Shown piece by piece: positions 20,495 through 51,870 of a stretch of 64,000 nucleotides of DNA. How positions within the stretch are numbered: position 1 is the stretch's first letter; each line of letters starts with the position of its first letter. Under the pieces are notes generated by a model, which did not search any database, was not told the origin of the DNA, and saw only the letters and a program-made list of their open reading frames with translations. The translations under genes and the position numbers were made by a program. The DNA is from Perkinsus marinus ATCC 50983 (Eukaryota; Perkinsozoa; Perkinsida; Perkinsidae), in NCBI RefSeq assembly GCF_000006405.1, contig NW_003208915.1, positions 22,399 to 86,398 of the forward strand, read 5' to 3'.

Positions 20495-23400
20495 TCACTG
20501 GGGCCGCTGTCGCTTAGCCGAGGGCTCCTTGGGGTCCTCAGTGATGATGTCTATCATGCGCCGCTCAGACAGTTCTGGTAAGACGTTGGTAGAACCAACA
20601 CTGGCCAGAATACCATCACACAGGAAGGCTCGGGAGGTGTGGGCCTCCAACCTACAAGGACCATTACATTACCCTCTGGTGCGGCTCAGGTGGCACTACC
20701 TTCGAAGATGCTTCGCGCCATAGGCCACGAACGAGTCCAGGAAGGACCCAATGCCTTCAATACGGTACAGACGAGATGCCTATAGGGAACAACGACGATC
20801 ATCGACCGCGAGGGGATGTACATGGGGCCTTACTGGTAACCGTTTGAATATCTCGTTCATAACTGAGTGGGCCAAGTCGCAGTTCCTGGCCGTGGTCTGC
20901 CACCTCCCACACACCTAACCACGACCACTACAGAGGACCAGTCGTCCCCCCTGGAGCCTACATCGACCAAAGCCTCTAGGTCCTCCTCCTTGAGGCCCTC
21001 CACCCATGAGCCAATGTCCAGGTCCATAGGGGCCTCCTCGCCCTCCATAGCGGTCGTCAGGGACTTCCACGCATGGTCTTCCAATACGGTCTTCATCAAC
21101 CCTATAAAAGGACACCTCCACACAGACCTTCATGAGGACTCCTACCAGGCCGTCTGAGCTTCAGGGCTAGGTCCAGGGCCTCTTTGTGGTTGCCTTGTAG
21201 TAATAGCATTTGGATGCGTGTGTCCCGCTGAGCCGCCTGGAGGGCCAAAGTTCAGTCAGTGACGGCAACTATGTAGTACCTCGGCCGATGCTTGCTGTGT
21301 CTTCTCCTTCTCCTCATTGGTGCAGTCCTCCCATAGCAGGAGTTTGCTATCAGCACCACCGGTCACCAGACAGTTCGACGAGGCATTCACCTGGACCATC
21401 CCGACAGAGGTCCCAGGTTCGAATCCCACGACCGTCAACTTACATCCATACTCCAAACTCTATCATCATGTCCCTCCAGAACAGCCGCGCACTCGCTGGT
21501 CCTAATGTGCCACAGGCGGACCAGACCATCTCCACCAGACGACACCAACTGCATACCCAAAGGGCCAACAAAGCTGACCTAAATGCAGGACCACCAGTAC
21601 TACTATGTAGGACCACGGACCAGACTCACGTTAAGGACGGCGTGTTCATGGCCCTGGAAGGTCCTTATACAGGTATAGTCCACCAGGTTCCACAACTTCA
21701 CCAAGGAGTCCCCCGAGGCCGAGGCCAGGACCTAGAAGGAGGAGCCATGATCCCAACATGGCCGATGTGGACCAAAGACCTTATCCACTGGGGAGAAGTC
21801 GACCGCCCATACACCACGACGATGGCCTGTACAGGTCCCTGCCAACTCCCACTTCTGTAGACTGCCAGCAGCACCCACCCTCCACACTTTAACCTGATAC
21901 CACCAAGTTGACAAGAACTCGACAGGGCGGCGGCCGGGGCCCACCAGCTTGTCCTGGCCCGCCGAGGCTATGAGCTTATCGTTGGGGGCACACTGGACGT
22001 CATTGGCCGACTTCAAGTGGGCCACTACGGTGGCTACTGCTGAGCTAATCTGACCATGACACAGTGTGAGAGAATACCAACAACAACAAACACGGTCATA
22101 ACATCGCGGAGACCCTCAGAGAATTTCGAGTAATTCCTGTTGGTCTGTGTACACCGCACTTCAAGTTCTAGGTAAATGTGGTCTCAGGTGAGAGAGACTA
22201 AACTACGACGTAGTTACTACGTATGCCTCAACACTGCTACTAGGTACCGGGAGGCCCCCCCCACATAGTGGTGGACCAACCTACCTCCACTGGTTCCCTT
22301 CCTGCCCCACTGAGGACGTTGGCAATATCCCACATCTTGACGGTCTTGTCCTCTGAGCCTACCACAGACAGTACAGAGGACCACTAGCAATAAGACTACT
22401 ACATGTGAAGGCCTGGCCGGGTCGCCGACGACTCAGGGCCACTCCAGTGACCGCTCCAGTGTGACCTGAGGGGCACTGGCCTCACTACCCTAGGGGGTGG
22501 TCCTACCCTTAAGGACAGCGAGGCACTTGTTGGTGTTGAGGTCCCAAAGCCTAGCGGTCTGGTCCTTAGACCCAGTGAGAGCATAAAGGGCGTCGTCCTC
22601 CTCTCGGGCATGCTTGCCGCCGGGACCACCAACAGCGATGGTCAGGACCGTCCCTTCATGACCAGGCAAAGGCACAGTGGAGATCTGGGACTTGGGGTCG
22701 GCCGAGAGTCCCGATACCACTCTAGGATTGGAGTCGTTGAAACCTGATGAGGGCCAACAGGACCATCACCCTCGAGAGGCCCAAGGCCCTGCTGCTATTA
22801 CTGGCAATGACCTTATCCTTTCCTATCCACTTAGTCGATATAACTTCGTCCAAGTCGCCCATGACCTGTCGTTCCCACTCGAGTCGGGCATCACTATAAC
22901 GCTGTGGCTGGTCCCCTTCAGTGGTGTTGACCCTCCACATGGTCAAGGTTCTGTCCTCCCCGACCGTACAAAGGTGACCCTCCTCTCCTATGGATGATAC
23001 CCAAAAGGCCTGAGGATGGACCCGTAGTAGTAGCAGTGATCCTAGAGAAGTAGCCTACATGAATAAAGCAGCCAGTGACCCCGACATCAGCTGCCTTGGT
23101 CTGGTCAAAGGTATGCCGACGTATGGGGTCCCACAGCTTTACCGTACCTGCCACGACAGCCATCCGTGGACGCCCCCAGGGGCCCAGTAGTACCTTCCTC
23201 CCCTACTACGGCCAGGAGCTTGTTAGGCAATAAGCACATCGCGTGGACCGCCTCGAATACAGGTAGGACATGGGCAGGCTTCCGAGTGATCTCCCGCCGA
23301 CCCTCCTCCTCCTTGTGGACCGTAACGTCCCAGAAGTTCACCATCTGGTCCTTGCCCGCCGAGATGAGGGTCTGTATGCAATGTTATGTTAAGTCCAGAC

Positions 23401-50300: not shown

Positions 50301-51870
50301 CTACAAGGTGGGTTTAATCGTCGGGATATCACTGATGTTTGTGTTGCTATAAAAGTGATATCAACCTGCTTTCTCTCTGCTCGGGGTGGATTATGTAAGA
50401 CACTTTGTCTGAGTGGTTAAGCCGGTCGTTTGTTACGCTGTTGGGTTTCGCTCGCGACGGTTCGAATCCCACAGGTGTCGTTGCACATGATATTCTGCCT
50501 TTTGCAGCCTTGTTGTTGGTGGGGCATCGCTGTTTATATTCTAGGATGAAGTCGTTGGCTCACGCCCTGCCTTGCCGAAGGAACATCAGGAACGTCGTAT
50601 ATTCTTGGGCCTCTCTAAGAGTGTCCCTCTCATACCGCCACCCGTCACGGTGGGTTTTGAATATCGTGTAGTGATGATCGACGGTTGGAGCCCTGCAGGC
50701 CCCCCCTTCTACGAGTATCGGACTCTTTCCTCTCCACTGTAGCGCAGCCCATAGACGTGTACCTCAATCGACGAGGGACAGCTCTACGGCGCAAGCGGAG
50801 TAAACGTAGGAATCAATGCGATTCATGTTTGGGGTAGCTGATTATTAGGTGGATCGTCGTTAACTGATGGTGGCCAGTCCGAGACCCTGTCCGAGTTCCT
50901 CTTGGGCTCAACGGCTGCACAAGAATCGGGTAAGGTGTGGTATGTCCTCCTTACCACAACTACTAACGACCTTCCCTGTCCGCTGGGTATCGTTTGATAT
51001 GCTTCAGTGGGCAGCAACTCCACAAGGGCAGGGTCGAGTGGAAGTGCATTAACCAGCGTGAGCTGTATGACGAGGACCTCTCGAGTACGATGTGCAATGG
51101 AGGGCTACTGGCTGGAGTGAATCGTGTCATCAGAGTGGCTCCGACAACAGCGTGTTGATGACGACAAAGTATCATGACGACTATCGCTTCCATCGACGAG
51201 CCATGCGAGTGAACTATCGCCATTGGAAGTCCACCAAGGCTCATGAAGCTACCGGACCATTGCCGACTCAGAGGTATGTCTCGTTGAGTTTCCTGGACTA
51301 AAACATCGGAGTTTCGCCCGTGATATGAGAAACACTAGTGAAAGATATATTTCGCGACTCCTGCGTAGCGCGAATATCGCGTTTTTCACAGAGTATTACG
51401 CCACTTTACGTAAAACGGGTGAGACTATTTTCAGTTATCCTAGCGTGAGACGGTTGATCACTGGATATGACCGAGATTTCAATGGAGTATCACCTGATGG
51501 AAGTAGAAAGGAAGCATCCAGTAGGACTACACGTGCGGCTGCTCGCCCTGTTTACTGCATCTCGACAGGTGAATCTTCTTTGTGGGGAACGGTCAGTACT
51601 CTATCCAATACAAGCGTTGATCGCGGTCTTCTCCATGGTGTTTTCAAACCTCATCTACATGGCTTCATCCAGAATCATGTTCAACGACTAAGTACTTTAT
51701 CATTTGCCTTTTCCTTGGCCAGTGGTTCCTCTCAGCTCATGCTGATAGAGAATGCTTCATGTCGTGCTTGCGGAGCTTGCATACACTACGCAAGGAATCC
51801 CAATATGTCACCATGTAAGGCTTCGGTGGGCCAACCCAAACGTGTGTATGTTCATGATGCAGAATTATGA
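47358..51870 (+). CDS. CDKL5-like Ser/Thr protein kinase with a long C-terminal tail, 15 exons
   Basis: Exons: 47358-47436, 47485-47620, 47893-47983, 48034-48175, 48225-48354, 48402-48516, 48564-49559, 49603-49937, 50082-50307, 50545-50683, 50743-50805, 50849-50929, 51008-51057, 51134-51273 and 51435-51870. They join in phase to 1053 codons. The kinase domain is canonical: [11 protein letters not shown] loop, AIKKF lysine, catalytic [16 protein letters not shown], and the activation-loop [14 protein letters not shown] with the TxY-like spacing of CDK-like kinases, then [14 protein letters not shown]. The N terminus (MNKYEV) and overall pattern are closest to CDKL family members, which in other eukaryotes act at cilia and microtubules. 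The tail (about 750 aa) is Gly/Arg/Ser-rich at first, then less simple. Tail exons rest on splice sites and phase only. Introns include one with tRNA-Gln, one with a tRNA-like sequence and one filled by a MITE-like copy. Confidence 0.85.
47437..47484 (+). other. 48-nt in-frame intron of the CDKL-like kinase
   Basis: 'gtaagc...tttgtag' interrupts the codons for KDTG and DIVAIKK. It is exactly 16 codons without a stop, so if retained it would insert residues between kinase beta2 and the VAIKK lysine. Confidence 0.75.
47664..47735 (+). tRNA. tRNA-Gln (CTG anticodon), nested in a kinase intron
   Basis: A full cloverleaf: acceptor GGTTCTA pairs with TAGAACC, anticodon stem CCAGA/TCTGG with loop CTCTGAA (anticodon CTG), T stem CTGGG/CCCGG with loop TTCAAAT. 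Box A 'tggtgtaacggttagc' and box B GGTTCAAATCC are both good. It lies within intron 47621-47892 of the CDKL-like gene, on the same strand. There is no T-run immediately downstream; the first short one ('ttt') directly follows the gene. Confidence 0.95.
50399..50480 (+). tRNA. Class II tRNA-like gene, probably degenerate, in a kinase intron
   Basis: 82 nt. Acceptor GACACTT pairs with AGGTGTC, box A 'tgtctgagtggttaagcc' and an exact box B GGTTCGAATCC are present, and there is room for a long variable arm as in tRNA-Ser or -Leu. But the T stem (GACGG/CCCAC) has two mismatches and the anticodon stem is weak, so the anticodon is unclear. Likely a tRNA-Ser pseudogene or tRNA-derived repeat. It lies inside intron 50308-50544. 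Confidence 0.6.
51308..51428 (+). mobile_element. Short terminal-inverted-repeat element, copy 7 (kinase intron)
   Basis: Left end GGAGTTTCGC and decayed right end GTGAGACTA. The interior keeps 'gtgatatgagaaacactagtg', GCGAATATCGCG and the GTATTACG/CGTAAAAC region. It occupies 121 of the 161 nt of intron 51274-51434; the acceptor 'ttttcag' begins right at its end. Confidence 0.8.

What the first reader, a model, noticed from the sequence alone, without database searches (positions are those of the whole stretch)
21391..50544. Introns of conserved genes carry or consist of tRNA-like sequence
Exact box B strings (GGTTCGANTCC) occur at 21416-21426 (+), 40900-40910 (-), 44430-44440 (+) and 50461 region (+). 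All four fall inside introns inferred independently from coding phase: UTP13 (53 nt), eIF5B (103 nt), the 44-kb membrane protein (166 nt) and the CDKL-like kinase (237 nt). A fifth intron (47621-47892) holds an intact tRNA-Gln, and a sixth (23477-23522) a variant box B. A 10-base-specified motif should appear about 0.1 times in 64 kb on both strands. In the 46-, 53- and 103-nt introns the tRNA-like part is a large share of the intron. This suggests introns born or renewed from tRNA genes or tRNA-derived SINEs, or selection to keep Pol III signals inside introns.
Basis: partly seen in the sequence, partly recalled or inferred. Interest (0 to 1): 0.87.

Follow-up and report, generated by a model that had tools for sequence, protein, structure and literature searches.

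The report
tRNA tail fragments serving as introns
In an oyster parasite (Perkinsus), well over a thousand scattered copies of a sequence that looks like the last third of a transfer RNA gene are found, and many of them are nearly the whole of a short spliced-out intron, which suggests an unrecognised way of making new introns.

Summary
Exact box B occurs four times in the window (0.17 expected) and 976 times in the 54.5-Mb assembly (132 for the reversed pattern). The organism is Perkinsus marinus or a near relative. Of 73 sampled exact hits, 14 lie in ARAGORN tRNAs. The other 59 share a tRNA 3' third: variable loop, T arm, variable acceptor bases ending in C, discriminator, T-run. A 5' half is not seen, and stem pairing is not kept. 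The extended motif occurs 1,701 times (control 8). In 37 of 92 tested loci the element fits, in either orientation, a 36-62-nt GT-AG intron model. Pfam domains cross the junction in 12 of these 37 (10 above cut-off), and a public P. marinus protein confirms two UTP13 introns. I found no target-site repeats, no inverted ends, no clear purifying selection and no element-free allele. Best reading: an introner-like family built from a tRNA 3' part, copied by an unknown mechanism. The tRNA-Gln, tRNA-Ser-like and eIF5B cases are whole or decayed tRNA-type sequences in longer introns, a different and ordinary thing.

The parts
21391..21443 (-). 53-nt GT-AG intron of UTP13; element antisense to the gene
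   Evidence: splicing; WD40 domain across the junction; public P. marinus protein P0001 continuous here
21408..21442 (+). 35-nt tRNA 3'-third-like element (variable loop, T arm, acceptor 3' strand)
   Evidence: motif score 36.2, best in window
23477..23522 (-). 46-nt GT-AG intron of UTP13; element antisense to the gene
   Evidence: read by eye; P0001 reads ...QCQM|VLRDHQ...; beta-propeller matches across the junction
23478..23512 (+). variant element (TGTTCGATCCC)
   Evidence: motif score 20.8
24475..24509 (+). element-like sequence (GGTTCTATTCC...CATTTTC) upstream of the UTP13 start codon; not placed in an intron
   Evidence: motif score 27.7
40881..40983 (-). 103-nt intron of eIF5B holding a decayed tRNA-like sequence with A-box-like TGGTGTAGTGGATAAGGT and box B, sense
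   Evidence: boundaries read by eye; A-box match C120:63345-63362 = window 40947-40964
   Evidence: intron not verified by homology
47621..47892 (+). 272-nt intron of a CDKL-like kinase
47664..47735 (+). intact tRNA-Gln (CTG) gene inside that intron
   Evidence: 65.9 bits
50308..50544 (+). 237-nt intron
   Evidence: frame only; score 5.9
50399..50480 (+). tRNA-Ser-like sequence with A and B boxes, not called by ARAGORN
   Evidence: read by eye; resembles tRNA-Ser(GCT)

Best explanation
The genome carries a dispersed family of about 35-nt insertions shaped like the 3' third of a tRNA gene (variable loop through discriminator plus T-run). Shown: they are numerous, occur in both orientations relative to genes, lack a recognisable 5' half, and in a dozen domain-checked genes make up most of a correctly framed intron of normal size. 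Inferred: such a unit was copied into genes and became the intron, with splice sites recruited or supplied at its edges (an introner-like gain); copies then drifted without clear constraint. A possible reason that either orientation can splice is that the near-palindromic T loop (TTCGAA/T) puts a branch-point-like adenosine about 20-23 nt from the 3' splice site both ways; this is a guess. The copying machinery is unknown.
For: 976 exact box B against 132 reversed. 1,701 extended-motif sites at up to 3 mismatches against 8. Matched test at up to 2 mismatches over 18 places: 3' motif 2,036 against 104, tRNA A-box motif 1,141 against 964 (285 against 61 at up to 1 mismatch). 59 of 73 sampled exact hits are outside ARAGORN tRNAs and share AGGTC - T arm - C72 A73 - TTT, with little information from -9 upstream. 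T-stem strands vary independently: 52, 51, 56 of 104 paired against 52.3, 51.4, 58.3 expected. Short-intron models at 37 of 92 loci; Pfam alignment across the junction by at least 5 residues each side in 12 of those 37, 10 over curated cut-offs (DIM1, DEAD, RabGAP-TBC, chromo, dCMP deaminase, CDC50, PSS, zinc_ribbon_6, Sec23, Ufd2) and 2 below (AAA, RrnaAD), plus two UTP13 introns. Best intron models over all 92 loci: 50 of 36-62 nt, 7 of 63-100, 35 above 100, so there is no bump where an insert in an existing 47-nt intron would fall. Of 37 scored motif-selected loci 18 have a 38-62-nt intron model scoring above 5, against 7.6 expected at random positions, p=1.4e-4. Near-identical elements with unrelated flanks: L120/L151 32 of 32, L131/L152 36 of 37, L123/L154 34 of 36.
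Against: No direct or inverted flanking repeats. No site seen with and without the element: 13 near-identical pairs and 5 paralogue pairs all have it. The acceptor bases are nearly random, which one master copy would not give (72 pairs within 1 mismatch against 49 expected). For the 59 box-B-selected loci the intron score was not above random positions (p=0.16). The random-position controls draw partly on tRNA-flanking loci, which look gene-poorer, and the intron models favour 36-62 nt by construction. Near-identical copies elsewhere were seen for only 4 of 31 searched loci (three of six searches scored only 40 candidates, so this is a lower bound); chance matches between members are not fully excluded. 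No RNA data.
Confidence: 0.55

Rival explanations
1. The motif is a functional DNA element (B-box, TFIIIC-type binding site or Pol III terminator unit) kept by selection, and short introns are simply where it is tolerated; introns acquired it rather than being made by it.
For: Conserved positions with free spacers look like a binding motif. Dim1 paralogues L068/L148 keep the element (2 of 35 element sites differ) while the next intron no longer aligns. Box B core 3 of 162 changed against 26 of 306 unspecified element sites. Works in either orientation.
Against: By hand estimate about 7 core changes are expected after allowing for how loci were picked, so 3 is not clearly low. L006/L112 lost A58 of the T loop and L080/L146 lost G52. 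Outside the core the element changes at least as fast as its flanks in near-identical pairs (14 of 338 against 132 of 4998). Evolving some 20 matched columns inside 45-nt introns many times in two orientations is hard to picture.
Confidence: 0.2
2. They are fragments of ordinary tRNA genes or tRNA-derived SINEs that fell into existing introns and decayed.
For: Some loci look like decayed tRNA genes by eye (50399-50480; L060 and L069). A roughly 300-bp interspersed repeat (L001, L043, L079, L089) carries the same box B to T-run block near its 5' end.
Against: No sizeable excess of A-box halves; sequence next to the element is coding exon in the domain-checked cases; no excess of introns of 63-100 nt; T stems do not covary; T loops TTCGA[A/T]T do not match most tRNAs sampled here.
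Confidence: 0.2

Closest known systems
Introners / introner-like elements (PMC9860276 and PMC7789003, passages seen)
   Same: Many similar short spliceosomal introns spread through one genome; PMC9860276 reports family sizes from 5 to over 2,000 and median lengths of 30-654 nt
   Different: No terminal inverted or direct repeats found; variable acceptor segment; both orientations; tRNA 3'-third likeness (the word tRNA has 0 occurrences in the main text of PMC9860276)
tRNA-derived SINEs (recalled)
   Same: Box B and tRNA likeness, dispersed copies
   Different: No A box, no body, no 3' tail, no shared flanks in the general class; about 35 nt only
Extra TFIIIC (B-box-only) loci (recalled)
   Same: Box B without A box
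   Different: Extends over variable loop, acceptor spacing, discriminator and T-run; over a thousand sites, many inside introns
Dada transposons inserted in tRNA genes of Perkinsus marinus (PMC3706591, passages seen)
   Same: Same organism group; interrupts tRNA genes
   Different: Large DNA transposons at fixed tRNA sites with target duplications such as TAGCTC; by inference they would leave the anticodon arm, which is absent here

Membership tests
Introner | Similar sequence recurs as spliced introns in many unrelated genes | tested here: met
   37 of 92 loci with short-intron models; 12 of 37 with a Pfam domain across the junction. Splicing inferred from frame and homology, not from RNA
Introner | Element boundaries coincide with intron boundaries | tested here: inconclusive
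   Element fills most of the intron, but by eye about 3-19 variable nt lie between GT and AGGTC in sense introns
Introner | Target-site duplication or terminal inverted repeats | tested here: not met
   103 elements: longest shared direct word 4.32 against 4.25 shuffled; inverted 3.97 against 4.27. Not required of every introner family (recalled)
Introner | Presence/absence variation showing insertion | tested here: not met
   13 near-identical and 5 paralogue pairs all carry the element
Functional tRNA gene | Paired T and acceptor stems, A and B boxes | tested here: not met
   No T-stem pairing above independence, no acceptor complement, no A-box excess
tRNA-derived SINE | Shared sequence beyond the tRNA-like part | tested here: not met
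   No conserved flank for the general class; one repeat family does have a body
Extra TFIIIC locus | TFIIIC bound in vivo | not testable with these tools
   No ChIP data

The most novel reading that the evidence does not exclude
A tRNA-3'-third unit is a mobile intron maker: a tRNA-like, Pol III-terminated piece is copied into genes and its near-palindromic T loop supplies a branch point in either orientation, so that one insertion becomes a working spliceosomal intron at once.
Probability: 0.35. Interest if true: 0.88.

Novelty: new variant of a known kind. Interest (0 to 1): 0.7.

Why it matters
How eukaryotes gain introns is a long-standing question; known bursts have been traced to transposable-element introners (PMC9860276, title and passages seen). 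A genome in which well over a thousand tRNA-tail-like sequences are scattered, many of them as whole introns in both orientations and without terminal repeats, would point to another source, and can be tested directly by comparing sequenced Perkinsus species.

Tried and rejected
Split or permuted tRNA halves: the acceptor 7-mer has no complement above shuffles within 300 nt on either side. Target-site copy as source of the variable seven bases: direct repeats near chance (upstream 4.81 against 4.64, SD 0.08, a 2-SD excess; downstream 4.56 against 4.58). A home-made gene finder failed twice and its successors merged genes; claims rest on local short-intron models and Pfam. Weak element traces in other introns: none above expectation (224 introns of 36-120 nt), so there is no sign that most introns are old elements; that survey did not pick up two of the window cases (23486, 40900). 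A rough extrapolation to about 4,400 copies from the mismatch distribution is not relied on. L131 has an fn3 match that passes its junction by one residue only and was not counted. L065 has prenyltransferase repeats, the best of which ends before the junction; not counted. L159 (C206) was fetched but not analysed. Literature searches (open-licence PMC only) listed no report of tRNA-like introns in Perkinsus; apart from three papers seen in passages, only listings were seen.

Full report
Identity. The window lies in an unnamed 54.46-Mb assembly of 347 contigs. Its UTP13 protein matches Perkinsus marinus ATCC 50983 best and P. olseni next (85% and 75%, lowered by errors in my spliced model); most of the correctly spliced stretches are identical to the P. 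marinus protein by eye. So the organism is P. marinus or a near relative.

Observation. Four exact box B sites are in the window, 0.17 expected. Genome-wide there are 976, against 132 for the reversed pattern. I examined 73 exact hits: the 4 in the window and 69 of the 100 places that one search listed, which is in contig order; the 31 not fetched are mostly the last ones. ARAGORN calls a tRNA at 14 of 73. The other 59 share a block of about 35 nt: A44 G G T C48, N C N, GGTTCGA(A/T)TCC, YR(G/C), six to seven variable bases, C72, A/G73, T-run. Outside that block information content is close to zero. The shared unit is thus the 3' third of a tRNA, from variable loop to terminator.

Not tRNA genes. 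The three outer T-stem pairs are formed in 29, 24 and 31 of 59 sequences, as independence predicts (30.3, 25.9, 30.6), and likewise in 95 listed motif rows and 104 unique elements. The majority base of each column would mostly still pair, so an ancestor with an intact T arm is possible. There is no A-box excess upstream and no acceptor complement nearby. The extended motif gives 1,701 sites at up to 3 mismatches against 8 in the reversed control. At up to 2 mismatches over 18 places the 3' motif gives 2,036 against 104, and a tRNA A-box motif 1,141 against 964, an excess no larger than at up to 1 mismatch (285 against 61), which is consistent with the real tRNA genes alone. The two patterns differ in information content, so the comparison is rough. 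It says that 3' parts are dispersed and 5' parts are not.

Introns. Introns called here peak at about 42-54 nt (the model favours 36-62). In 37 of 92 loci (55 picked by box B, 37 by the longer motif) the element lies in a 36-62-nt GT-AG intron model scoring above 6. All 37 spliced models went to Pfam. A domain alignment passes the junction by at least five residues each side in 12: L068 DIM1, L105 DEAD, L066 RabGAP-TBC, L119 chromo, L094 dCMP deaminase, L055 CDC50, L134 PSS, L143 zinc_ribbon_6, L059 Sec23 trunk and L114 Ufd2 above curated cut-offs; L133 AAA and L004 RrnaAD below. The other 25 had no domain there; 7 of them had one elsewhere in the model. Both UTP13 introns are in addition confirmed by the public protein. 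Eight of these 12 are sense and four antisense; both UTP13 cases are antisense. Enrichment: 18 of 37 scored motif-selected loci have a 38-62-nt intron model scoring above 5, against 7.6 at random positions (p=1.4e-4); for the 59 box-B-selected loci the score was not above random (p=0.16) though above tRNA loci (p=0.002). The random positions came partly from tRNA-flanking loci, which look less coding.

Insert or maker. Within the 36-62-nt class, element introns have a median of 50 nt and other introns 47. Over all 92 loci the best models are 36-62 nt in 50, 63-100 nt in 7 and longer in 35. A 30-35-nt insert in an existing short intron would give about 80 nt, and there is no bump there; the model does penalise lengths above 62. 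The simplest reading is that the element is the intron. The T-loop adenosine lies a median of 23 nt from the 3' splice site in 19 sense introns, and the matching one 20 nt in 18 antisense introns, a usual branch-point distance (recalled); no branch point was mapped.

Copying and age. Further copies of loci were sought by self-search of 31 loci (three of these scored only 40 candidates). Together with twins seen in the motif list this gave 13 near-identical pairs (about 95-98%, taken as haplotypes) and 5 paralogue pairs. In the 13 pairs the element differs at 15 of 455 sites (3.3%) and flanks at 132 of 4998 (2.6%). In the 5 paralogue pairs the element differs at 24 of 172 sites and flanks at 269 of 1514. 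All 18 pairs carry the element. Four of 31 searched loci hit a near-identical element at an unrelated place: L120/L151 32 of 32, L131/L152 36 of 37, L123/L154 34 of 36, and L006/C206 92% of 38 nt. By hand estimate the chance of one such match is a few percent per locus, so this is suggestive only. No flanking direct or inverted repeats are seen. The family is thus older than the haplotypes, and no current movement was caught.

Constraint. Box B core positions changed at 3 of 162 sites and unspecified element positions at 26 of 306. Loci were chosen for an intact core, which alone should roughly halve core changes (about 7 expected by hand), so selection is not shown. Dim1 is the strongest single case for conservation (2 of 35 sites); L006/L112 and L080/L146 lost core bases.

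Rest of the window. tRNA-Gln (47664-47735), the tRNA-Ser-like sequence (50399-50480) and the eIF5B case have A boxes and lie in introns of 272, 237 and 103 nt: whole or decayed tRNA-type sequences nested in introns, which is ordinary. They should not be pooled with the short element introns.

Verdict. I file it as a new variant of the introner kind by what it works like; membership is not proven, because insertion itself was not caught and terminal repeats are absent.

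Noticed in passing
L001, L043, L079, L089 around the box B hit (L002 and L078 a related one): Interspersed repeat of roughly 300 bp with box B, T-run and a conserved 3' end (TTCGCTCGCTCC); its head begins ACTAGGCCTTC. It carries the same tRNA-like block near its 5' end.
   Followed up: partly
L105 about 468-540, L133 near its start, L059/L094 border of the query; window near 42907 by eye: One or more other short dispersed repeats of roughly 50-100 nt with dozens of copies at 77-94% identity.
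   Followed up: no
L152 and L153 (C267:300280-300880 and 306050-306650): Neighbouring paralogues (P4-ATPase-like by eye) nearly identical on one side and diverged on the other, with the change falling at the edge of the tRNA-like element: looks like a conversion-tract end.
   Followed up: partly
L061, L068, L119: Second, degenerate elements in neighbouring introns of the same genes (by eye).
   Followed up: partly
window 40947-40964 and matches on C60, C197, C281, C284, C342: A-box string TGGTGTAGTGGWTARGGT recurs at several loci (capped list), perhaps a separate full-length tRNA-like family to which the eIF5B intron sequence belongs.
   Followed up: no
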